Assembly: GCF_020520425.1 (NCBI RefSeq)
Contig: NC_079491.1
Location: forward strand, 23,675,449-23,739,448
Reading direction: 5' to 3'
From: Spinacia oleracea
Taxonomy: Eukaryota; Streptophyta; Magnoliopsida; Caryophyllales; Amaranthaceae
Length of the DNA stretch: 64,000 nucleotides
This document shows positions 1,661-52,764 of this stretch, piece after piece. The first letter of the stretch is position 1; the number at the start of each line of letters is the position of its first letter. The notes under the pieces are model-generated. The model was not told the origin of the DNA. It was given only the letters and a program-made list of their open reading frames with translations, and ran no database searches. The position numbers and the translations under genes were made by a program.

Positions 1661-4600
1661 TCATGAGGAAGCAGCTGCTGCCTTTTCCATTTTCTCCTTC
1701 TCAATCTCCACCCGTCTTTGGTCAGCATGCTGGGCAACTCCGTTGGCCAGTGCTTGATATTGGAATTCAAGAGTTTGACTTAAATTTTGGAACCTTAATG
1801 GATCGGAAGCTTGCATGACTTCAACAATCAATTAATTCAAAAGTCAGTGACAAAGATAACTATATAAACTAAGCATGAAAGAATAATTGATTAAAATGTG
1901 TCCACTGACCTTTGACTGTATCAACAAACAATATGAAAGGATCAACCTCATCAATTGGAGATTGCAATTCTTCATCATCACTGTAATCATCATCAGATTC
2001 GTCATCATCCTCGTCAGTAGGTCTGAAAGCTTTAGCCTGCACGTGCAAAATTAATATCAATCAAATATCCACCATCCAACCACAGAAATAACACAATAGA
2101 AACAAAATGGAACAAAACCCTGTGCAGAAAAACGATTGCAATACTTTCATGCTACAAATATACAAAATTACCATACCTCATCTCCTGTTTGGTAAAATAT
2201 ATACAGAACAAGAACACAAAACGAAACAAGAAAATCCAGGTCAATTGCATAAAAAGGGAAAAGACAAATAAACACCACTAGGCAGAAGATTTTCTCTATA
2301 ACTGCAAAATATCATTACACAAGGTAATCCTACTACACCCACAACAAGGCAGGCTATGCTGCTCAACAGAAAATGGTCTGAATAAAGCATATAGAGAAAA
2401 TATACAGCATTTCTTCTTATACATTGGAAAGAAAAATCTATACGTGCTTCCAATCTTACTCCCGCCATTCTTTTTTAGAAGGAAAGTTTGTTTTAGTTGA
2501 CACACTTCTTATTTTGGCAAGTTTTGTAATGTAATATCACTTTTTCACCCTTACATAAATATGTGGGTACGTTAGTGTGTTAGTGGATAGGGATATTATT
2601 GTCTATTACCTTCCTTTATCACATTTTCTTAATATGTATGCCAAAAGAAAGTGTGTCAACTAAAAAAGAACGGAAAAGCATGCACTAATACAAGCATGTT
2701 GACGGGCATTGGAGTAGTGTAAAGTCCCCTTGAGAACTCAAATACTCCACAAGAGCAACTAAGCACTACTTTGAACTTCAGGATATGTAGCTCAAATTAT
2801 TAAATATAGGTTGTTTCTCTATATGTGGTGGGAATAGGTGAATAGCTACATATGAGTTTTAAGTTCTCAAGGGAACCACCAACGTTATGCAGCAGAATCA
2901 ATAACTTTTTTTCTTGACAAGTGTGTTCACGGAATCAAAAGGTTTTTCGTAACACTTTCAAAGCAATCTTGTGTTGAACTGCTCTCTGTTGGTAACAAAA
3001 TTTCTAAACATATTGCAAAAACCACATTTTTTTATTAATGATACTTTCTCCATTCTTAGTTGACACGTTTATTTTATCACGTTTGCCAACGCAAAACTTC
3101 AATCAATAATAGTACAGAGTATCTTGAAAATACGTAATGACATGAATCTAACAAAATTGATATTTTGAAAATATGTAATGACACGAATCTAACAAGATAC
3201 CACATGGCTATATTTTATCTCGAGTATAATTCACAAAAGATAGTCAAATTAATGTATGTGAATAGTGTCAAAAGTCAAAACGTGTCAACTAATAAAACAG
3301 GAGGAAGTATCTAGCTTCGAAAGCATGCAATATAAGGATCTCTGAGCATCCGGCTATTACTTACCGTAAGCACAAAATGACTGTCTAGTTATTCCATAAC
3401 ATAAACTATTTAAAGATCAACAACAATCACTCACCCGTGCGGCTAATCGACTCAGATGATTGCTATCAGCATCATCCCCTTCATCCTCATCAACTCCCAT
3501 TTCTTTGTCAGAGCCCTCACCTTCATCTTCACCGTCTGAATCAAAACCATCCATCTCATCATCATCTTCAGCCTCATCCTCCTTTGCAGCTTCTGTCACA
3601 TGAATAACAAATAAAATAAAATTATAATTAATTGCTGTATACACCCAAACAAAATAATATAATCCTAACACTTATAAAGCTTCATACTTTGATTACTATT
3701 CACCCAATAGTGCATTTACGTGCATGCCCCTCACTTCCTTCTTTGTTTTATTGTCTTAATCTTAACAATAGAGCATTTACGATTTCACCCTTCCATTGCT
3801 ATACAAAATGGGTATAATTTCCTATACATTGTACCTTCCAACTATCAATTAAAACGCATATGGTTTCTATTTCCTGTTACATGTAAATCGAACATCTAAC
3901 TTTAACATATCATTTCTAGCATTTACCATAAATTGTAAGTTCCTAGCTTTTAAGTAACATTTTTACAAAAATAATTTTGTATACCTTGGGGGATCGTGCG
4001 CCTAGTGTATCAAAATGATCAAACGAGCAACAGAGATTTCACATCTTTCTGAACCAAACATGCGAAGTACGAAAACATGAGAGCAGACATACCTGCAACC
4101 TGCTCCTTGTACGCAGCAAGCAGCTCAAGTGTAACCCTGAAAACACGTCCTAGGGCTTCCACTGGTAGTTGGTCAGCAGGAAGTGACAACAGCGACGTCA
4201 ATCCCAGACAGCACACTTTCTTATCATGCTCCCTACAAAATGAAATAGATATCATTCTAGTCCTCAACACAGATTCCAAAAAAAATGACACCTAGATAAC
4301 TTTTGCTCCCAAGTCAAAAGCAAAATAAATTTGGATGGAATACAATTGAGAAGGAAAAACTACCTTTTAAAGTTAGTACGCACACCGCTTCTTTTCACTT
4401 GCTGTATCATTTGGAACCAAAGAGTGAATATCTCTGCGGAGACACCTAACTGATGCAACACACTCAATGCTAAACTTGGATTGTAATAAAGGGCATTAGC
4501 AATCTGCAGGAAGAATGAACATAGAATTTCAAGATTAGAAGTAAATTGTAGCAGCAAAGCCCAGACAAAATGGGGAGCACATATATCAAGCAAAATGGTG

Positions 4601-7600
4601 AGCTCATCCACAATATACAATTTGAACACTTTGCAACTTCAGACATGCTTATATAAGAAGACAAAAAGCAGATAGTATTGGTTTTTTCCTAACTGAATGA
4701 GGCATGATTTACAAACGGTTTCTAAACTTCCATACAAGAAAGTAGTCTATGGACTATGGTGCAGAGTGTAGACTAATAGCGAAGCAAATAAACGGTTAGA
4801 AGCTACTAGCATACCACTTGCATCAGAAGGCATTTGAAATATGGTTTCTCAGCTCTACGCAGTCGCTCAACAGTGATCCTTAAGTAAGGCTCGATCCATT
4901 GGTCAACTTGGCCCTTGCAATTTTGGAATACGACTTCAATGAGCTTTGGCGCAGGCTCAATATCGCCATCTTCAAGATTGTTATCAGCCATTATCTGTAA
5001 ACAAAATCATTCAACCATCAGCTACCAGCACAAAAATGGTGCATATATAAAGCATAACAAGGATGATTTGATGACTTCATATGGAAGGTGAAGAAATGAA
5101 TAATTTCAAATCAACAAATAATGGCTCTTTCATTAGCTTAGATCAAAGTGACAATTTGTTGGGAATTAGAAACTTACACAGGAAATCATTTTCCATAGAC
5201 TTTGTTGGTAGTCTGGATCTTTGCAAGTTAGAAAATGAGCAGTGCTGCGGGAAATATAATTGTCCAGTGGTACCAAGATGTCTGCATCAAATCATCCATT
5301 GCAAAAAGAATTACTAACACCTCTAATTAAATCACCGAAATTTTAATAAGTTGTCAAAAAATAAAGCATGCCTGTTCCTAGAACAGTGAAAGGAAAACTA
5401 CAGAAGCCCAAGATAAACCAGCAGCCTCCTCAGCGCCACTTGAGAAAACCACAAGGTGATTTTAACCAAGATAATCAATTATGTATTTTAGGGAAAGCAC
5501 AAATCCACAAACTGGATGAAAATTATTCCTGTCAAATATAGTAACTTCTAATTTCTCAAATCTTTTTTCTAATAAAATTCATCGATAATAGAACTGAAAT
5601 TCAAATCACAGGGAGGAAAGGCAATGTATTAAAAATATATAGATGATGTCTCCTACTATTTGAACTTGCTGTCCAACTTTACATCCTTCAGTAGTCCCAA
5701 AATTTGACATCTCTCTTAGCTCTGCTTCTTAATCAACAAGCCTTGGGAACAAAATGTCTGATACTAGACATAATTACAAATTATATTTAGTAGTATTCAT
5801 CCAGCAACAGGCTCAAGAGCATCCTTGCAAAGGACGTATTTTTTTAGGAAACCTAGACAGTGGCAACCTAAATCTAAATAGTTTGCCGCAGCCCAAGAAA
5901 GTCAGCCTACAATAGATCACAGGCAGTAAATTCAATCAACAAAGTGCAACCACAGCACAACCAGGATTAAGGTGATTTGATTTTCAAGACGCAGACAACC
6001 GCCAAGGCATAAGTAATTTAGTACAGTAAGGCCAACCGCCAACCGCCAAGCCAAGTTTTCTGAAGGAACATAAGGCCCACAGACATGTTCTTATACCTTA
6101 TTATCTTCATTGACCTTGGCAAGTTTGCAACAGAATCTGAATTCCTAAGACAAGCTATTTCTTATAATATATATCACATTCCCTATATTGATCCCTTCAA
6201 GGAGTTTAATTAATTGTAAGGCCCCAAAAAAACGTTCTTGTATCGTTTCACATTGAAACGCTTGTCAGGTGACTTCTAGAAAGTGCTGGGCCGGGGGTTC
6301 CATGCGTGGATACTACAGTTCTGCAAGGGCTAATCCACCATCCAACCATATTTTTAACAAGTGAATGACTTTGTTCCTGAGTGCTGACCTATCTCATATA
6401 ATCAAACTAAAGTCAAAAGAACCTCAAAGCCACCATCTCAATGAATAGTTAGGATCGCATGAGCCTTGAGGCGTACGTCTACCCCCCCCCCCCCCCCCCC
6501 ACCACCACCACCACTTTCGGTAAGGAAATAGCAGGGTTGAATAAAAAAAGGATAGAGAAAATAACAAACAACACAGATTATTTATCACCGGAAATTTAAC
6601 TCTAAACTCAAGCATATTGGACTAGTCTTCCGATTCTATTATGCTGGTTAAGTTGTGAGACAAACGGTAATGACATGTTCTTCCGTTGACCCTTTAAAGG
6701 AGAGATACTTCTAAACAAGCTAAAAGGGTGTGAATAGAGAGGCAGACTACTTACTTGGAAAAAAATCAATAGCCCAATCTGACAGTGCCTCCATCATCAA
6801 AGGCCAAAGACTCCACATATCCAGAGAAATTGTAGGAGAAAAGAATGTCATATAGGACACAATCTCCAAAACTTCTTCGAAGACCTCTGCAAAGACAGAG
6901 CAGAAAATCAGAAATTGGAAAATGCTTAAACAATTCCAGACAGATTGCAACAGATAAATTTTTTTTAACTCAGACAGGTAACTAATTTACAACATAAAAC
7001 ACCATGCCTGCAAGCTATCCATTACACCCCTATTAAATAGGCAGATTCTATAAAATTTTGATCAATATTCCATCACTAGGCTACATTTCGAGAAGTTGAT
7101 CCCTGCCCTTAAGATCAATTCATATGTATACCAGATCAATCCAAGCTGGCATCCGGAAACCAAAGTGGTACTGCACATAAACAATATCTGCAAACCATCG
7201 GAAAAGAACCTTCACTGTCCTTGCATTGGATGCTTCAATCTTTGAGTTCATTAAATATGATTTTGGATGATGTGCTCAAGTAACACACTTGTGATGAACA
7301 CTTGTCAAATACTCTTATGTTTGTTTTTCAAACTGATAAAATCTTTCCCCTATTAGAAACTGGAAAAGCCAAAACAAACTTTCCCCTTTCTGAAACTGAC
7401 AAACCCAAACACCCCCCCCCCCCCCCTTGCAATGTTTTCATTTTTTGCAGTCTTCCATCTCCCACAGAAGTTGGCCCCACGGTATTGTATACCGTAAACA
7501 GAATCATAGACCATAACAAATTTACTCGAAAGAATTCAACTCAAAATTTTGCTACATCAGCACACCTGCTGTAAGGAGTAAAAACAACAATTTCCCAAGA

Positions 7601-41180: not shown

Positions 41181-41873
41181 ATTTGTTGAAAAAGACATGT
41201 AGATTTAATTAAATTCGTGCCAAGTGTATTATGTTCTAAATCAATGTTGCTTATGTTCTAAATAGGGAACATTGCGAAAATCATCTGTTAGATATGTAAA
41301 GGTTTGTATTTTTCTTGCATTTTATTTTGGAATCTCATTTTTGCAAAACAATGTGATAATACTATTAGATAAGATTATTTTAGTTAATTTCACCTTTGAG
41401 AATATTTGTTGATTAAAATAAGTTTTTGTATTATAAGAGTTGTTTTTTACTGCTACTTAGAATACAAAAACTTAACAATTAATTTCACTGTTAATTTGTT
41501 TTTCATGATCTGAAAATTCATTGAGTTTCTTTTGTTATTTTTTTTATAAGTTTCTGAAAATAAAGGAAGAAAATTTTGTTGAAAAAGACCTTAGATTCAA
41601 TTAAATTCGCGCCAAGTGTGTTAGGTTCTAAATCACCCTTGCTTATGTTCTAAATCAGTGTCGCTTATGGTCTAAATAGGGGAACATTGCGAAAACCATC
41701 TGTTAGATATGTAAAAGTTTGTATTTTCTTGCATTTTATTTTGGAATCTCATTTTTGCAAAACAATGTGATAATACTATTAGATAAGATTGTTTTAGTTA
41801 ATTTCACATTTGAGAATATTTGTTGATTAAAAGAAGTTTTTGTATTCTAAGAGGTGTTTTTGACTGCTACTGG
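41181..41873. repeat. Direct duplication, two copies of about 290 bp
   Basis: Copy 1 (about 41181-41460) and copy 2 (about 41574-41873) share long identical runs, including ATTTTGGAATCTCATTTTTG and ACAATGTGATAATACTATTAG, in the same orientation. The short spacer between them is not repeated. No coding potential is seen. It lies downstream of the ELMO gene. Confidence 0.8.
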
Positions 41874-42975: not shown

Positions 42976-45900
42976 TTATCTTCTCAATAGGTTGTATGCA
43001 GGCAAATCTTTTACGCTGCAGACATCTTCCAACCCAAGCTCCCGTTCTAGTTGAGTTCTCGTAGATTTCAGAACATCCTGATAAATTATTCTCACACAAA
43101 ATTACTCAAAAGGAACGTCAACTGTTTCTTATCCCACAGATAAAAGACAAGGGAAGAATAAGGGCTTACATTAAACTCCATATATGATGCACGTTTGGCA
43201 AGCCATTGCGCGTCCATCATCAAAAAGGCTATACAATACAGATTGTCAAATGCCATCTCATCCTGTGCAAGTAATTCTAGAAATCGTGCCCCTGCTCTAG
43301 AAGTTGGCTTTCCTGCATTAAAAATTTGGACTCCGCTGCTTGTTATAATTTTGCTTTAAGCTACTACGGAGTACATGTTATCTTACGTTTCTTCTTCCTC
43401 AGCCTTCTCCAGGGACTAGGGAATGAAGGCATTTAATGAGAGTTGCCATGTTTTCCAAATTTGACAAGGTACAAGAAAAATTATTGAGTCACTAACCAGA
43501 TTGGAGATCCAGCATTTGTGCCAACATGAACGAAATGTTGATGCCAGCTACAGCAAAAGGATATTCCCACTCAGCCCTCTGTCCATCTTTCTTGTGCAAC
43601 AAACACTGGAAAGAATCCTGGAAAAGTGAGAAGATTCATCAGTTCGTACGTTTCAACTCCATCTTGACCAAAACGTTCCACATTATCAAAATTGTACAAA
43701 AATTTCTGTACCTACAAGGCTACAATAGATAATAAATGCTCCTCACCATAATGTCTCAATTTTACAAAGACCGCCAACTATTAAAAGAATACAGTGACAT
43801 GCTGAGAAAGTCATGTGCAAAAACATAAGTGGAACAGGAAACTTCTACTGCATCGACATCAAATAAAAGTGGACCATAAAAAATGAGGAGCAGCAGAGTT
43901 ACAGCCATGAACGCCAAAAGCAAAGGAAAGAGGTATGGAAAAGCTATTTGGATTGTGTTAGCCTTAATGGTGACAGGTCCACGTGTCAGATTGCAACAGT
44001 CCAATAAGATACAGACAATTTTAATGCAGTTAATGTTTCGTGCATGGAATGAGAAGAAAGCTCGTGTCAAGTTTGATGGAAGAATCCGGATAGGCAGTGA
44101 ACATGCTGCTGCTAGGATGACATATGGAGATGTAAAGGAGTGGGCAGATGTAATACAGCAACACTGCAAGAGTGCTGATGGAAGTATCAGGATAGGCAGT
44201 GAGAAATAATTGACAAAAATGTTCCTCTGGTGCCGAAAATGGATCAGCAGATCTTGCATTATCACATATCACACACACAACCACTGTTAGATTTTAAAAA
44301 TTGTTTTCTAAAATAAACATCTCGTCGATTTCATTGTCAGGCAGATTAGGGAAAGAAATGCGAGTGAAAAAGAATGTTCAAATTTATCAAATTAGTCACA
44401 CATTTGAAAGCAAAGTGGTCAAGAGTTAAAAAAAAAAATTAAAATATTAGATAGTTGGATACGTACCGGATATTTCTCAGCAAAATATATGAGATTCTCA
44501 AGTGATATGTATCCGCCACCCCTAGCATAAAAAGATAATCAAATTCTGGGAAGATGTAGGATGGTTTTTTATGTAAGGTGTAGTGTCGAACAGAAATTCA
44601 TACCTAAAATCTGTTGAGGGATCGGTTCCTTGCCAGCCCATTTCCTTCCATAGTTCTGATTTAAGAGGTGGGAGCTCCCTGTTGGGAAAAGCCAACCTCC
44701 AAAGCTGCTTAAGAGCATCCTGGAACAAAATATTTTCTTTCCCAATTTGATACTAGAATATATGCATTAATATACATAAAAAGATCCAACTTTAAAACAC
44801 ACACACACTCGCGCACTAGAAATACGATAATCCATTTAGAAATTATGTAACAAACTAACAATTATAAGGGAAAGAAGTGCCTGAGTAATGAGCTTTCCAT
44901 CATCACTTAGAGACTAGAGAAGGTGTGAAGAAATGGAAATCACAGCGTGAATAAATTCTAGATTCTGATCATCATCAGCTGCTCATCCAGAAAATCAATT
45001 GAATTGTTTCTAATATTAATATGGGTGTATACTGTATAGTAATAATCAAATGCAGTCCGTGTAGAATTAAATATAAATGTCCAATCGTTAGCAATGTAAA
45101 GCTCAGGAAATTGCTGAAATACAAGTATACAGCAAACACAATAAGCATTAACAACTACAAATCATAAACTTTGAAGCAAAACTCTCCAAAACGAACAGTC
45201 AGGTATCGACATGACATGACACACATGCAACTCAATAACAGAGCATTGTTGACAACTACTTATATATTAAAAAGGCAGGAACGAAATTAGCTGTATGTTG
45301 GCAGCATTTGTAAAAAAAAAAAAGAACAAAAAAGCTGTTTAATAAGTTAAACCTAGATATTCCTACTAGTCTACAGCTTATCAGAATCTTAATGTTTTTT
45401 TCAGACCGTATGCTAAGTTATAGACGAGGGGGATTTCCATGCGGTTCATAGCATTGCTGACTATTACATCTATCAGAACGGCAGCAAATAAATTAGCGTT
45501 TATGTTAGCAGCATTTGGTTGGGGGGGGGGGGTTGAATTTGAGAAAACCCAACCTGTTCGATAAGTTAAACCAAACATCCTACTAGTGTGGATCTTATTG
45601 AATCTTAATGTTTTCACTAGGTTTACCCGACCATGAAATATATCTCATGATCTTCCCTCGGTGTCTTGAAGGAATAACATGTCAATGCAATTTTCACTGC
45701 AGTGATACTGCTGCTAATCAAAATTTCACAAAATTGCATTGTTTCATACTTTCATAGACCATGCAATAAAACTGTCTAAATGACCATGAAATGAAGATCA
45801 ACCTGATGCTCTATCCGGCTTCCATCAAAAGGAACTTTCAACCTGCTTTGAAGCTGTCTGAGTCTTTCTTCCTAAAACAGCAACATGACAGCGCATCAAT

Positions 45901-48900
45901 TATGCAATTTAAGAAAATTTGAATCAAAGTAAAAGCAAGTGAAAAATAATGGTAGAAATAAAACCATTTCTCACACCCCCTCCCCATTTCCTTTATTCTC
46001 CTTGCATTCCGTGAATAGAAATAAAAGATCGGTGTCATGTAAAATGTGTCAAAAGGAAGAAAAGGCACGCACCTTCAGGAAAACAAAGTGTACTAAAAAA
46101 AGTAGCCCCCCTAATGCAGATGAAATGCCAGTTATTTATGAGAATATTGGATACTCTTAGATTGGAAAAGGAAACACTTCACAAAAAACATTAGAGGTTC
46201 GAAATTGATTCAATTTGTTACAGGAATGCCATTCTCTACTTCGTAAAATCAAGAAAACATAGGTCAACTGAGGAAAAGTAAAGCATCCTGAACACTGACT
46301 ATACCTGTAAAGATGTAAGAGCTGGTGCAAGGATAGGTGTCTGCGATGTGAATGCAGGACCCACAAGACGTCCAAGAAGTGACCTCGAACCAAGGATGAT
46401 ATTTGCTGGATGGCAATAACAATTTTAAACATACATTAGATAAAGCCATAAAGGACAGAGACAACTGCCATATGATAACAATGGTATAACATATCCTGCT
46501 CTGATCAAGCTTCCTACATTCCCAAAATTTCACAATGTCAAGCTTTTAGTTGACAACTCATTCAAGAAAGACACAATTAATCGATTATCACTTCATAAAA
46601 TATCATAAATTCATAATAGACTACAATCAACTCATGCCCCTTTTAGAACAAAGCAAAAAAGAATGCTATTCCCTCCGTTAATGAAAGTTCTTCCTGTTAA
46701 TTGGCGTTCCTTTTTGTTCTTCTCCACTATGAATCTTTTTTTTTTTGGGAAACTTTTTTCCCCAAAAAATACCCTCATTTTACGATTTAATATCCTACCA
46801 TATTTTACCTTTATTCCATTCACCTACCCAATTATTCCCATTGATTTCCCCACCCATCTTATTTAATTCATTCACCCCCCCCCCCCCTCCCCCCAATGAG
46901 CCAATTCATTCACCACCTTATTTTCTGATTTTTTTCATCAAATATCTCCACTTACTTAGTTTATTCATTTCTCTCTCTTTCCTTTATTCATAAAGTATAA
47001 TCTTATTTCTTTAATATTTTTTCTTACACCCAATCATTACAGATTCCAACTTTCTTAATTCCTTCCCCGATTCCAACCGGAGAGAAGAAAAGGGAACGGA
47101 GGGAGCACAATACCGGTACTTTGTCCATTTTGATATTTGGATAAAGTATTCGTTCCATCACGAAGACTGATTAACGTATAAGCTGAGCACATCTTTAGCT
47201 CCAAGAATTCCAAACATTGCCATATGTGGATAATTTGCATTATGATGAAAAGGATACAACCACGAGTATTTGGTCACAAGATCATAAAAGTACATCAACA
47301 TAAGAGATTATCCAAAATAAATTATATCACTTTCTGGGAGGAGTAGGTGAATCGCTAATGATGGCTTATTTCCCAATTTCTTTACAAACCATCATAAAAG
47401 AGACGTGATCCAAAACATGGGCTTAGTCACGACCAGTGTATAGAAAAGCTCAAAGTCATCAGGGAGCTTGTTGTACCTAGAAGCGCCTTGGGCATGCTTC
47501 ATTGAAGTGAACGGCATTGTATAAGTTCAAAAAATCTCACTGAAGTGCGCCTCTTGGCTGAGAACTTGCGCTTTAAGTGAGTTTTATGCACCTCACGTGT
47601 GCTACATCTTTGAATGTGCTTCGCCTAGAACTAAGAAAACGCTTTCCCCTATTGCATAGGCACGCCAACTTTTCATACACCGGTCACGACAACATAAAAT
47701 GATCAAACTCGAGTAAAGAAACATGTCAGAGAAGATTTGGTTGAGAAAGACTTCCTAGAAGACACATTAAATCATTTTTATGATCTGCAACAACGAAAAG
47801 TATCATCGTGTTTTAGTAAAGGGAGGGTGTTCCATCAATGTGTGTCTCAACAAGACCTTCATTAAATGGGGATACAAAAGAGAAGAACTCAAGCCGACAA
47901 CTCGTGAAGATCTTGGCGATGATTATGCAAGTCGAAAACATGGGGTAAATTGAGTATTACTGTTGAACACAAAGGTATACAATTACTACAAAATTCAGTC
48001 CTCAATTTTCCCTAACTCTTTGATGTAAAACTCGATCAAACTTGGATGTTCAAAGTCCATGGAGTTTATTAAGGTCACCATGTTATTCTATGTTTCCTGA
48101 AAATAATAGTCATTCTATAATATCAAATAAGACTTAAGTCTTTGAAATCTTAACTATATGAAGTTCTTTCGACAGAACATGAGTTTACAAATCTTGATCC
48201 CTTAATGCCATGTGAAGATGAGTTTACTTATTTAGCCGACACATACCCTGCCAAAACACCACTACATTAAGATCTACGGTTCCATGGAGTGATCTGCGTA
48301 GAACATCCCTGGATAACAGGCATCGGAATATTGGGATAAGCTTCACAAACGATGAATTACCTATTTATCCATACCATAATCATGCCCTGCATATAACATT
48401 GTTTCATAGCCGCGGCTACATAAACAATATTCTGGTTGGATCATCAATTAACATAAGTTCACGGAACTACCTTTATGATCTACGTTATGAAGCAGATCAA
48501 ATAAGCCATTACTCGGGGTTTCTTTTGGTTTTGATAATACTCCAAGGGAGATAATTGTGATTATAGTTATGAGTTTGAAGTATGCGCCAATCAAGTACAA
48601 GGTGAAATCTTATGTGATAATATGTGAGACTTCATACAATCTCCTCCTAGGACGACCATGGCTACGTGAGAATTAGGTGGTTGCATCAACGTTACATCAA
48701 AAAGCCAAAGGAATGTTGGCGTTTCCATCGGGCGTATACACGATTTACGGGGATGTTCATGGAACATCGCAATATGCCAAAGTAAATCAATTCGAAGAGT
48801 TTAATCTCATAGAAAATAAAGAAGATTACTTTTATGACAACGAGATCACAACATGGCCGACTCCGGTGATGAAACAAACACGCATGTGTTGGCCTATGTC

Positions 48901-51900
48901 TGAATCAGAACGAAACCAACCAAACTGGATCCCAGATAAGATCAAGGCGCAAAGGTTGCGCAAACGGCTTGAATGACTCTACTGAGAGGAACACCATGTC
49001 CATTGTGAAAGAATATTGACAGCTGCTAATGAGGTGGTTTATATCCACTCCATTATGGAGCCTCACATCTTTATGCGAAATTAATCCGGTAACACTAGCC
49101 TCATGTCACGTAGTGTGCAAAGCATGGACATCATGACTCTTGGATCGAGAAGACAACCAGTTGTATGTTGCCAAGCGCAAAGAAGAGGGAGTGCACTATC
49201 ATTAATCCTAACGGCAAGTAACAAACTCCCCGGTCTCCGGGTCATGAATGTGTTCATTAATCGTAACACCAAGTAACAAATTCCACAATCTCCCTATGTT
49301 GTTTCCAATCTTCTTTGCGCTTGGCAACATACACCGAGTTGACTTTTCGATCCAGGAGTCATGATGCGCATAACAAATTTTCCTATGCGTTGTTCCCAAT
49401 CTTTTTTGCGCTTGACAACGTACAACAGGTTGTCTTCTCGATCCAGGAGTCATGATGCCCATGCTTTGCACACTACTTGACATGAAGCTAGTGTAACCAG
49501 ATCAATTTTGCCTAAGAAGATATGGGGCTCCATAATAGAATGGAAAGAAACCACCTCATTAGCGGATGTCAATATTCTTTCACAATGGACATGGTGTTCC
49601 TCTCAGTAGAGTCATTCAAGTCGTTTGCGCAACCTTTGCGCCTTAATCTAATCTGGGATCCAGTTTGTTTGGTCACCTTCTGATTCAGAAATAGACCAAT
49701 GGATGCATGTTTGTTTCATAACCGAAGTCTACCATGTTGTGATCTCGTTATCATACAAGTAATCTTCTTTATTTTCTGTGAGATTAATCTCTTCGAACTG
49801 ATTTACATTGGCATATTGTGATGTTCCATGAACATCTTCGGGAATCGTGTACACGTCTCATGGAAACACCAATATTCCTTTGGCTTTTTGATGTAATATT
49901 GATGCAACCACCTGATTCTTAGGTAGTCATGGTCGTCCTAGGAGGAGATTATATGAAGTCCCACAGTTTATCACATAAGACTTCACCTTGTACTTGATTG
50001 ACCTATATTTCAAACTCAGAACTATAGTCACAGTTATCTCCCTTGAAGTATTATCAAAACCAAAAGAAAACCCCGAATATTGGCTTATTTCATCTGCTTC
50101 ATAACTTAGACCATATGTAGTTTCGTAAACTTATGTTGATTGATGATCCATTATCAACCAGAATATTGTTTATGTAGCCGATGCTACGAAACAATGTTAT
50201 ATGCAGGGCGTGATTATGGTATGGATAAATAGGTAATTCATTGTTTGTAAAACTTATCACAATATTCTGATGCTTGTTATCCAAGGATGTTCCACGCAAA
50301 TCACTCCATGGAACCAAAGGTCCTAGTGTAATGGTGTTTTGGCACGTTGATCAAGCTAATCAAGAGTCAAAGGTATCATGATCTTTGCTTCTGCATCTTC
50401 ACATTACATTAAGGGATCAAGATTTACAAACTCGTGTTCTGTTGAAGGAACTTCATGTGTAATTATTGAGATTTCAAAGACTCAAGTCTTATTTGATACT
50501 ATAGATTGACTATTATGTTCAAGAAACAAAGGAAAACGTGGTGACCTTAACAAACTCTCTGATTAGGCAGAGAGAATAGCATGGACTTTGTACATCCAGG
50601 TTTAACCGAGTTTTACATCAAAGAGTTGAGGAAAATTGAGACTGAATTTTGCAGTAATTGTTATACATTTGTATTCAACAGTTGTACTCAATTTACCTCA
50701 TGTTTTCGTACTTGCATAATTATCGACAAGATCTTCACGAGTTTTCGGCTTGAGTTCTTTTCATTTGTATCCCCGTTTAATGAGGTCTTGTTGGGCCTGG
50801 GGCACACATTGATGGAACACCTCCCCTTTACTAAATCACGATGATACTTTTTGTTGCTGCAGATCATCTAGCGTGTCTTCTAGGAAGTATTTCTCAACCA
50901 AATCTTCTCTCACATGTTTCCCCACTCGAGTTTGAACATATTGATGACCAATGTTCGTGCCCACGACAACATAATACGGAAATTGAGAGATCCAAGAATC
51001 TTGAAAATGGTCCTACAGGCTATCTGTGCCCACGGATGGAAGCTACCATGTCAAACGAAGACCCATAACAATCTTTTCACCGAGTATTCTATTCATCACT
51101 ATTGTAACTACAACATCCATGATATCAACCTTCAATTGAAGCCTAATAATAGAGGTTGTTATCATACATGTTATGCACAATGACAGCTAAAATGGTAAGA
51201 TGCAGCAGGGATATTTGAGTGGTTATTATGACACAAAAAAGATAAGCCCTGGTGCTTTAGTGAGATAAACTTAATAGAAGGAAGTTGTCAACTATAGAAT
51301 AGGAAGTATTAGGGCAAGAAAAAAAACCTAAAGGAAACAATAACTCACAGTCTAGCACACCATACTCCTTACTAGGTTTGATCCTTGGCGAAGCAAGAAG
51401 GAGAAATTGTACATGATCTTGCACACCTATATACTTGACCTTCAGGCCTTTTTCACCTCACTTGATTTCCACTTGTTTCAGGAGAAACAAGCTTAGAAGT
51501 TCAGTTCAAGGCCACAAGTTTAGATATTTCAAATAAGTTAAGTACAAGGTGAAGTGGCTTCAAAAAGGCGCACCACGCACGAGGTGCAACTTTTCTTTTT
51601 TTACACCATTTTGTTTTTAATATTTACCAAGTGTGCCTCACTTCAACCAGGCGTGCCTACATGCACATTGAGCTTTTTATACATTGGTTCAGGGAAAATA
51701 AGAGCTCCCCAGGTTCACTTCACAACTACAATAAGTTATATTTCAGATAAGTTTAGATAAGCCGTAATAAGTTTAAATAAGTAAAGTTCGGGGCTATTTG
51801 TTAAAATCAGTTGAAAAAAGCTTGGATAATGATTAATAGATCTAGGTGAAGAGAATCAAAGAGTTAGTAGATATTGACATAATAGACCTAGGTGAAGATA

Positions 51901-52764
51901 TTCAAAGAGTTGGTGGATATCGGCACTGACACATAGTATAGAAAATATAAACACAAAACTATACCATTCTGAAGGCCATTTTACCTACCAAGGTCACCTT
52001 AAGTTCTACATAATTCGTCACTTGTATACTTAAGATTTCATAGGAATATCATTGTTGTGTTTTTAGTTTTATAGCTTAGGTGAAGCATTTGAATAATGCC
52101 AATCGAAGGAAAATAGCAGTAACTTCAAATTTATTTATCTGCTTTGTTGTAGTTGTTGATTATCTATGCTTCGCACCCCTCTTAATTCCCGAAAAAGAAA
52201 CATCCTTGTCTACCTCCTACATTGTGGCAGGTTTTATATGTGCATCAGATTCTAACTACTCACATAGTCACATGTGATGTGATTGAAATTGCAATAGAAA
52301 GTTCCACAATCAGTTCAATGCAGTAAAGAAACACTTGCTTTGCACAAATTAATTAATTCATCTTAAGTGGCAATACGTAAACAAAAAGGTTAATGAGTTG
52401 CACATGAAGTACCTAGCCACTGAGCCCACTGCGCGAGCAGCTGCGAAAATATAAACGACCAATGAAGATTGACCTTCCTCCCTTGATCATCCAGTAGCTC
52501 TTCCAATGAATATTGCTAAAATTTAATACAACATTTAGAGATCAAACCATAATCATCATTCACCAAAAATCCCAGAAAGCAATACGAATAACGTTTTACA
52601 AGAAGAAAACAATTCACCTCACTATGTCTATCACCATACTCACGATGATTCCCAAGCAATGGCTCCCCTAAACTCCCGAAATCCGATGAATCGTAATGCT
52701 CACGCCTTCTACCATCAACATCCCCATGATGAAGCCTTCTCCTCAAAGTAGTCGACGGTGACAT
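42976..52764 (-). CDS. ELMO/CED-12 domain-containing protein
   Basis: Exons: 52764-52618, 52515-52413, 46405-46305, 45871-45803, 44719-44604, 44521-44467, 43617-43497, 43312-43170, 43077-42976; 957 nt, 318 aa, all phases close. The N-terminus (MSPSTTLRRRLHHGDVDGRR) matches plant ELMO proteins of the At1g03620 type. A hydrophobic stretch (LHWSFIFSQLLAQWAQWLA, about 68-86) may bind membrane. The ELMO domain covers about 118-310 and includes ELWKEMGWQGTDPSTDFRGG (about 162-181), EWEYPFAVAGINISFMLAQM, ASYMEFNDVLKSTRTQLERE and the C-terminal DLPAYNLL. In animals ELMO and ELMOD proteins act with Rac GEFs or as Arf GAPs; plant function is largely unknown. The ATG at 52764 is used because the frame upstream offers only TTG. 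A leader intron (about 52807-52988) is likely. Intron 2 is 6.0 kb and holds a large inverted retrotransposon repeat. Confidence 0.94.
46669..47106. mobile_element. Stowaway-like MITE in ELMO intron 2
   Basis: The left end TTCCCTCCGTTAATGAAAGT and the right end GGGAACGGAGGGAGCA form a terminal inverted repeat. TA precedes the left end, but the right flank is CAATA, so the duplication is imperfect. The interior is rich in T and C, with a C run near 46877. Confidence 0.5.
48180..48976 (+). pseudogene. Ty3/gypsy gag-protease fragment, left arm
   Basis: The frame shows GYINNILVGSSINIS, the protease region, then a segment ending LLGRPWLREN, and after a stop an open run VVASTLHQKAKGMLAFPSGV to QRLRKRLE (48677-48976). 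The order protease, LLGRPW, STLHQK is that of gypsy-type Pol ahead of reverse transcriptase. A 6-bp deletion at 48437/48438, seen by comparison with the other arm, removes the catalytic Asp codon and the next one. No reverse transcriptase follows. It is defective. Confidence 0.75.
49100..49500. repeat. Nested sub-repeats at the axis of the inverted repeat
   Basis: A unit with TTGCGCTTGGCAACATACA and CGATCCAGGAGTCATGATG occurs as direct copies near 49310-49375 and 49405-49460, and as an inverted copy near 49118-49185. A second unit, CATTAATCCTAACGGCAAGT, recurs near 49255 as CATTAATCGTAACACCAAGT. The axis of the large inverted repeat therefore consists of several smaller direct and inverted units. 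Confidence 0.7.
49600..50340 (-). pseudogene. Ty3/gypsy gag-protease fragment, right arm
   Basis: On the minus strand the frame reads FTNNELPIYPYHNHALHI and then GYINNILVDNGSSINIS. DNGSS matches the aspartic-protease active-site D-x-G motif; the Asp codon is at 50155-50153. Downstream, the GRPWL and TSTLHQK-type blocks seen in the left arm recur with stops and frame changes. It is a defective copy of the same element segment in opposite orientation. Confidence 0.75.

What the first reader, a model, noticed from the sequence alone, without database searches (positions are those of the whole stretch)
47690..50960. Intronic long hairpin built from a Ty3/gypsy segment
Two arms of about 1.5 kb, roughly 85-90 percent alike by eye, face each other inside intron 2 of the ELMO gene. 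Transcripts of the host gene would carry both arms on one RNA. In plants, long inverted repeats are processed by Dicer-like enzymes into 21-24-nt RNAs, as established for loci such as Arabidopsis IR71 and maize Muk. This intron could therefore be a host-driven silencer of a gypsy family and could influence splicing of the ELMO gene. The structure is seen; the role is inferred.
Basis: partly seen in the sequence, partly recalled or inferred. Interest (0 to 1): 0.85.

Follow-up and report, generated by a model that had tools for sequence, protein, structure and literature searches.

The report
Old transposon hairpin in plant intron
A fragment of an old jumping gene sits as two facing copies inside an intron of an apparently intact plant gene and could fold into a long RNA hairpin, but its sequence shows the wear of an unused relic rather than the marks of a working silencer.

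Summary
The inverted repeat is real. Left arm 47693-49186 (+) and right arm 49400-50946 (-) are 84.4% identical over 1560 columns with gaps counted, 87.3% without. It lies in intron 2 (46406-52412, 6007 bp) of a nine-exon ELMO gene on the minus strand. The arms are sister copies (100/100 support) of the end of a protease-like frame of a Ty3/gypsy element; full-length relatives in the same genome are 71-72% identical. A 13-bp direct repeat, CACGACAACATAA, flanks the unit, so the hairpin probably entered the intron as one piece. Host RNA is predicted to fold mostly arm to arm. Against a maintained silencer: arm differences are flat over codon positions; differences that keep G.U pairing in host RNA are not favoured (65:58); only 35 of 1474 and 8 of 1527 arm 21-mers occur exactly in eight sampled family places; and eight of nine sampled family rows have shorter tips than either arm. 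Best reading: a decaying fold-back relic, possibly diced at low level and methylated in cis. Small RNAs, expression and methylation could not be tested.

The parts
47685..47697 (+). left copy of 13-bp flanking direct repeat CACGACAACATAA (probable target-site duplication)
   Evidence: longest exact repeat shared by the two 60-bp junction stretches; 1 of about 20000 random 60/60 draws from the window shared a 13-mer; one search found the same pair
47693..49186 (+). left arm: gypsy protease-like coding segment, element-sense on + strand; stops about 50 bp short of the stop codon of the family's frame
49187..49399 (.). hairpin tip: about 11 bp unmatched to the element, then partial tandem copies of the segment end (49198-49241, 49254-49370) in the orientation of the right arm
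49400..50946 (-). right arm: same gypsy segment, element-sense on minus strand; read first in the ELMO transcript
50962..50974 (+). right copy of 13-bp flanking direct repeat CACGACAACATAA
46406..52412 (-). intron 2 of the ELMO gene (6007 bp; the other seven introns of the model are 82-1083 bp)
42976..52764 (-). ELMO/CED-12 family gene, model of nine coding exons, 318 aa, open throughout
   Evidence: PF04727, 3.6e-53
46667..47105 (.). dispersed repeat of about 440 bp elsewhere in intron 2, not part of the inverted repeat
   Evidence: 478 candidates in the first look, 40 scored, best long match 81%

Best explanation
It is a decayed, transposon-derived long inverted repeat. A piece of an old Ty3/gypsy element's protease-like coding region became a fold-back (hairpin) DNA, probably during reverse transcription or break repair, and was captured as one 3.26-kb unit in intron 2 of the ELMO gene, leaving a 13-bp repeat of the target on both sides. 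Since then both arms have mutated as ordinary non-coding DNA. Each ELMO pre-mRNA can carry both arms and fold them into an imperfect 1.5-kb duplex, which is normally removed with the intron. Some of this RNA may be cut by Dicer-like enzymes into 21-24-nt RNAs that act mainly on this locus itself. Shown: the arms, the host gene model, the flanking repeat, the family, the codon and pairing tests. Inferred: fold-back origin, insertion as a unit, transcription, splicing, dicing, self-methylation.
For: Arms are sister sequences, 100/100 support. Between arms the differences are flat over codon positions, 51/45/53 (p=0.71), while changes shared by both arms against six family copies are 46/32/85 (p=9e-7; contrast p=0.01), so the coding constraint seen on the shared branches is not seen after the arms split. 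13-bp direct repeat at both outer ends, and no match of this gypsy family listed in either flank. Predicted host-strand fold -2192 kcal/mol with 1363 of 1447 pairs arm to arm; -806 when one arm is turned round; -841 and -847 for two (mutually overlapping) window segments. No excess of G.U-keeping over A.C-type differences in host RNA, 65:58, p=0.59. Two other loci of the same family also carry inverted copies, L009 and L010, so such fold-backs recur.
Against: The left copy of the 13-bp repeat is preceded by and begins with letters (GTCACGAC) that resemble the element just outside the aligned arm, so part of it may be element sequence and not target. About 16 bp between the right arm's match and its repeat copy are unassigned. 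Long perfect stretches remain (longest 54 bp; 66 perfect 21-bp duplex positions), enough for dicing. Identity is somewhat uneven along the arms (chi-square 24.8, 13 d.f.). C-to-T changes are not significantly raised at CG sites (10 of 98 against 51 of 646 at CHH, p=0.43) and only weakly at CHG (12 of 81, p=0.056), so long-term methylation is not shown. No empty site was available.
Confidence: 0.7

Rival explanations
1. Trans-silencer: ELMO transcription drives a hairpin whose siRNAs silence a gypsy family, as Mu killer does for MuDR.
For: Long duplex predicted in host RNA; both arms lie in one intron; 193 of 1474 and 155 of 1527 arm 21-mers lie within two mismatches of the sampled family loci; MuK and IR71 show that plants dice such RNAs (PMC3431836 passages; PMC4687873 passages).
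Against: Matches over most of an arm outside the window are 70-75% identical; closer ones are short: 81% over about 340 bp, 73-79% over other partial stretches, 79-90% under 100 bp. Exact 21-mers 35/1474 and 8/1527 against 1150/1554 for a family member against five others. Eight of nine sampled family rows have shorter tips than the arms, and third-position differences are 26, 27 and 31 between L007 and three others against 53 between the arms. No sign of kept pairing.
Confidence: 0.08
2. Cis effect: the repeat makes a heterochromatic intron that changes ELMO splicing or causes early polyadenylation, as intronic transposons can in Arabidopsis.
For: Intron 2 is 6007 bp, other introns at most 1083 bp; in Arabidopsis, genes with longer, more methylated intronic TEs tended to show downstream transcription defects when the marks were lost (PMC4417168 passages); weak CHG-context C-to-T excess, 12 of 81, p=0.056.
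Against: Splice signals and reading frame of the model are intact; no significant CG-context decay; no expression or methylation data.
Confidence: 0.17
3. Two independent insertions of the same segment in opposite orientation, or an assembly artefact.
For: Inverted pairs of this family occur elsewhere.
Against: Arms are sisters with 100/100 support, end at nearly the same element place (L011 4646 and 4649) and share 219 changes against the family in 1377 polarised columns; about 13% substitutions between the arms speak against a fold-back assembly error.
Confidence: 0.05

Closest known systems
Maize Mu killer (MuK)
   Same: Inverted duplication of a partly deleted transposon; hairpin RNA processed to siRNAs there, possible here (PMC3431836, passages seen)
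   Different: MuK gives a perfect 2.4-kb hairpin against an active element; here the arms are 87% alike, no close target family was found, and the unit lies in a host intron
Arabidopsis endogenous inverted repeat IR71
   Same: Inverted-repeat RNA that DCL2, DCL3 and DCL4 process (PMC4687873, passages seen)
   Different: IR71 siRNAs were measured; here none could be looked for
Intronic transposons under heterochromatic marks in Arabidopsis (IBM2, CMT3, DDM1 dependent genes)
   Same: TE-derived DNA in an intron of a gene (PMC4417168, passages seen)
   Different: Here the TE piece is an inverted duplication; chromatin state unknown
Rice sirtrons (siRNA-rich introns)
   Same: Introns as possible siRNA sources (PMC5260113, passages seen)
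   Different: Defined by siRNA data, which are lacking here

Membership tests
Transposon-derived long inverted repeat | two long facing arms of common transposon origin | tested here: met
Ty3/gypsy retrotransposon fragment | homology to copies joined to gag, RT, RNase H and integrase in gypsy order | tested here: met
   arms to L011/L012. Downstream on the same strand L019 has PF03732 gag, PF00078 RT, PF17917/PF17919 and PF13456 RNase H-type, PF00665 integrase, in the order RT-RNase H-integrase, and its gag-bearing frame shares the protease-like stretch with the L012 frame that contains the arm segment. That both belong to one element is inferred: no LTR pair was found in L011, L019 and L020. 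Four open pieces of the arms gave no Pfam match
Ty3/gypsy retrotransposon, complete insertion | LTRs and a short (about 5 bp, recalled) target duplication | tested here: not met
   only an internal segment, flanked by a 13-bp repeat; no long direct repeat around it; family homology stops at both outer ends
endogenous inverted-repeat siRNA locus (IR71/MuK kind) | siRNAs from both arms | not testable with these tools
   no small-RNA data held
endogenous inverted-repeat siRNA locus (IR71/MuK kind) | RNA able to fold into a long duplex | tested here: met
   prediction only; imperfect, longest perfect run 54 bp
MuK-like trans-silencer | near-identical target family in the genome | tested here: not met
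   candidates scored: 40 of 60, 33 of 33, 38 of 38
ELMO/CED-12 gene (host) | ELMO domain | tested here: met

The most novel reading that the evidence does not exclude
ELMO transcription still feeds the hairpin to Dicer-like enzymes and gives 21-24-nt RNAs that keep intron 2 methylated and reach part of a divergent gypsy family through the few well-matched stretches: an intron-borne, gene-driven memory of an element whose own close copies are gone.
Probability: 0.12. Interest if true: 0.65.

Novelty: new member of a known kind. Interest (0 to 1): 0.27.

Why it matters
Long hairpins inside introns of active genes are natural tests of whether spliced-out introns feed RNA silencing. This one has clear ends, an open host gene and measurable decay, so it would be a good negative or weak-positive case. 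On present evidence it is an ordinary relic.

Tried and rejected
Selection on pairing: compared G.U-keeping with A.C-type arm differences in host RNA; no bias. Methylation decay: C-to-T by context; not significant. A closer parent family: searches with the whole left arm, the tip with the near part of the right arm, and the far part of the right arm found no long match closer than 75%. A larger element around the repeat: the left flank lists only a dispersed repeat at 46667-47105 (40 of 478 candidates scored), the right flank only short weak repeats; the flanks share the 13-bp repeat and otherwise only 11-12-bp words. A twin ELMO gene to serve as an empty site: the exon 2-3 stretch matched only the window's own gene; weaker relatives lie on C1, C2, C4 and C5. 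Genome-wide background rate of long inverted repeats: not obtained. LTRs of the family: no long direct repeat pair in the 27 kb held around one copy. Small-RNA papers naming spinach: eight listed of 681, none on this locus by title and abstract start. An earlier wording of mine, 'gag-pro segment', was dropped: the arm segment lies in a separate upstream frame.

Limits: codon and context tests used six family loci, L003-L008, out of 25 long match rows outside the window; the tree added pieces of L009 and L010. They were used because they were the loci handed out or fetched. The ten loci of the 21-mer test are eight distinct places, since L003 lies in L011 and L005 in L012. The codon test used only the stretch in one open frame of L005 (1071 sites) and columns where the outgroup rows agree for the shared changes. 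The relative age argument assumes similar rates. Right and left arm changes, 93 and 70, do not differ significantly (p=0.085).

Full report
Observation. The two arms exist as described. blastn of the region against the window gives 47693-49186 against 50946-49400, 1560 columns, 84.4% identity. A global alignment gives 1301 matches, 189 substitutions and 79 gap columns, 87.3% without gaps, K2P 0.14. The five other self-matches listed (over 100 bp, E <= 1e-10) are direct and at most 230 columns long. The arms differ too much, in substitutions and indels, to look like a fold-back assembly error.

Host gene. On the minus strand, nine exons placed by homology with GT/AG at each internal junction make a 318-aa protein that matches PF04727 ELMO_CED12 at 3.6e-53. 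Exon 2 ends at 52413 and exon 3 begins at 46405; intron 2 is 6007 bp, the others 82-1083 bp. The host transcript is the minus strand, so the right arm comes first. No transcript data were at hand.

What the arms are. In the window's own genome (894.2 Mb, 242 contigs) the left arm finds 43 matches, 40 of 60 candidates scored; 25 match rows outside the window's two arms cover nearly the whole arm at 71-72%. Searches with 49100-50000 (33 of 33 candidates scored) and 50000-50960 (38 of 38) gave 73-75% and 70-72% over most of their length. Closer matches are partial: 81% over about 340 bp (L009), 73-79% over other partial stretches, 79-90% below 100 bp. These copies continue on both sides as a long element; against L011 they are 91-97% alike, L009 86-87%. 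In L011 the arm segment lies at the 3' end of an 857-aa frame (3021-5594, minus). The counterpart frame of L012 shares a protease-like stretch (49% over 146 aa, 2e-38) with the next long frame downstream, which carries gag and a weak aspartic-protease match (656-746), followed by G-patch, RT, RNase H and integrase. The order RT-RNase H-integrase is that of Ty3/gypsy (recalled). LTRs were not found in the stretch held, so that all frames belong to one element is inferred.

Ends and tip. The outer ends of both arms match L011 up to 4646 and 4649. There lie two direct copies of CACGACAACATAA, 47685-47697 and 50962-50974; 1 of about 20000 random pairs of 60-bp stretches of the window shared a 13-mer. 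About 16 bp between the right arm's match and its repeat copy are unassigned. No poly-A run stands at either end. At the inner side the left arm stops about 50 bp short of the frame's stop codon, then the strand turns and shows partial tandem copies of the segment end before the right arm. This fits a fold-back DNA with a rearranged tip that was captured at a staggered break; the route is inferred. Whether the first letters of the left repeat copy are element or target cannot be decided.

Decay. Differences between arms fall 51/45/53 on codon positions 1/2/3 (356/359/356 sites); shared changes of both arms against six agreeing family copies fall 46/32/85. The shared branches thus show coding constraint, and the arms since their split do not. 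On a tree the arms are sisters (100/100) with tip branches 0.044 and 0.094; eight of nine family rows have tips of 0.004-0.022, L009 0.074. Third-position differences are 26, 27 and 31 between L007 and three other copies, 53 between the arms. At equal rates the arms split before most sampled copies spread. A polarised count gives 70 changes on the left and 93 on the right (p=0.085).

Hairpin. The 3261-nt host-strand RNA folds at -2192 kcal/mol with 1363 of 1447 pairs between arms; with the left arm turned round it is -806, and two overlapping window segments of that length give -841 and -847. The longest perfect duplex is 54 bp, with 66 perfect 21-bp and 40 perfect 24-bp positions. Dicing is possible if the intron is not destroyed first. 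But pairing has not visibly been kept: G.U against A.C type differences in host RNA are 65 to 58 (p=0.59). Opposite-direction hints: identity is uneven along the arms (chi-square 24.8, 13 d.f.), and CHG sites show a weak C-to-T excess (12 of 81 against 51 of 646 at CHH, p=0.056; CG 10 of 98, p=0.43).

Targets. Of arm 21-mers, 35 of 1474 (left) and 8 of 1527 (right) occur exactly in ten family loci (eight distinct places); within two mismatches 193 and 155; exact 24-mers 25 of 1471 and 1 of 1524. For L003 against five others it is 1150 of 1554 exact 21-mers. A trans role against today's family would rest on few stretches.

Same family, other fold-backs. L009 (C6:42828000-42837000) turns from sense to antisense, with arms of 1.24 kb, 89.9% alike, and L010 (C2:63686500-63696400) is a palindrome 96.4% alike over its 9.7 kb that reaches the start of the stretch held. 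Among the 43 rows these two and the window are the only inverted neighbours. Fold-back copies thus arise repeatedly without a host role being needed.

Known systems. MuK is a perfect 2.4-kb hairpin from a partly deleted MuDR that silences the active element (PMC3431836, passages). IR71 RNA is processed by DCL2/3/4 (PMC4687873, passages). Heterochromatic marks of intronic TEs matter for transcription of exons downstream (PMC4417168, passages). siRNA-rich introns are known in rice (PMC5260113, passages). The present locus shares the anatomy of these but lacks the near-identical target of MuK and has no RNA evidence.

Verdict. A real but drifting transposon hairpin in an intron of an apparently intact gene; new member of a known kind. 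Functional silencing is possible but unsupported.

Noticed in passing
L010:1-9713: Large palindrome of the same gypsy family, 96.4% alike, turning point near 4864 with almost no spacer, reaching the start of the stretch held.
   Followed up: partly
L009:2663-6431: Second fold-back copy of the family, arms 89.9% alike with about 1.3 kb between.
   Followed up: partly
L012:2106-4678; L019:5290-9501: The gypsy family seems to repeat a protease-like block (GRPWL..ASTLHQK) at least three times and an IMEPHIFL..VCK.WA block twice over two long frames; the latter gives a sub-threshold F-box-like match. A G-patch lies before the RT, and the gag model has two stretches in one frame.
   Followed up: partly
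L011:658-2178; L012:5516-6676: Open frame of 506 aa (386 aa in L012) on the strand opposite to the element's genes, between the arm-bearing frame and the gag frame; the L012 one had no Pfam match.
   Followed up: no
46667-47105: High-copy dispersed repeat of about 440 bp in ELMO intron 2; 478 candidates in the first look, 40 scored.
   Followed up: no
51444-51549 and 51687-51815: Short weak dispersed repeats right of the hairpin.
   Followed up: no
41229-41457 and 41643-41871: Direct duplication of about 230 bp, 94% alike, downstream of the ELMO gene.
   Followed up: no
G000 C4:65249224-65264925: ELMO relative with about 14 kb between neighbouring exon matches; possibly another long intron.
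   Followed up: no
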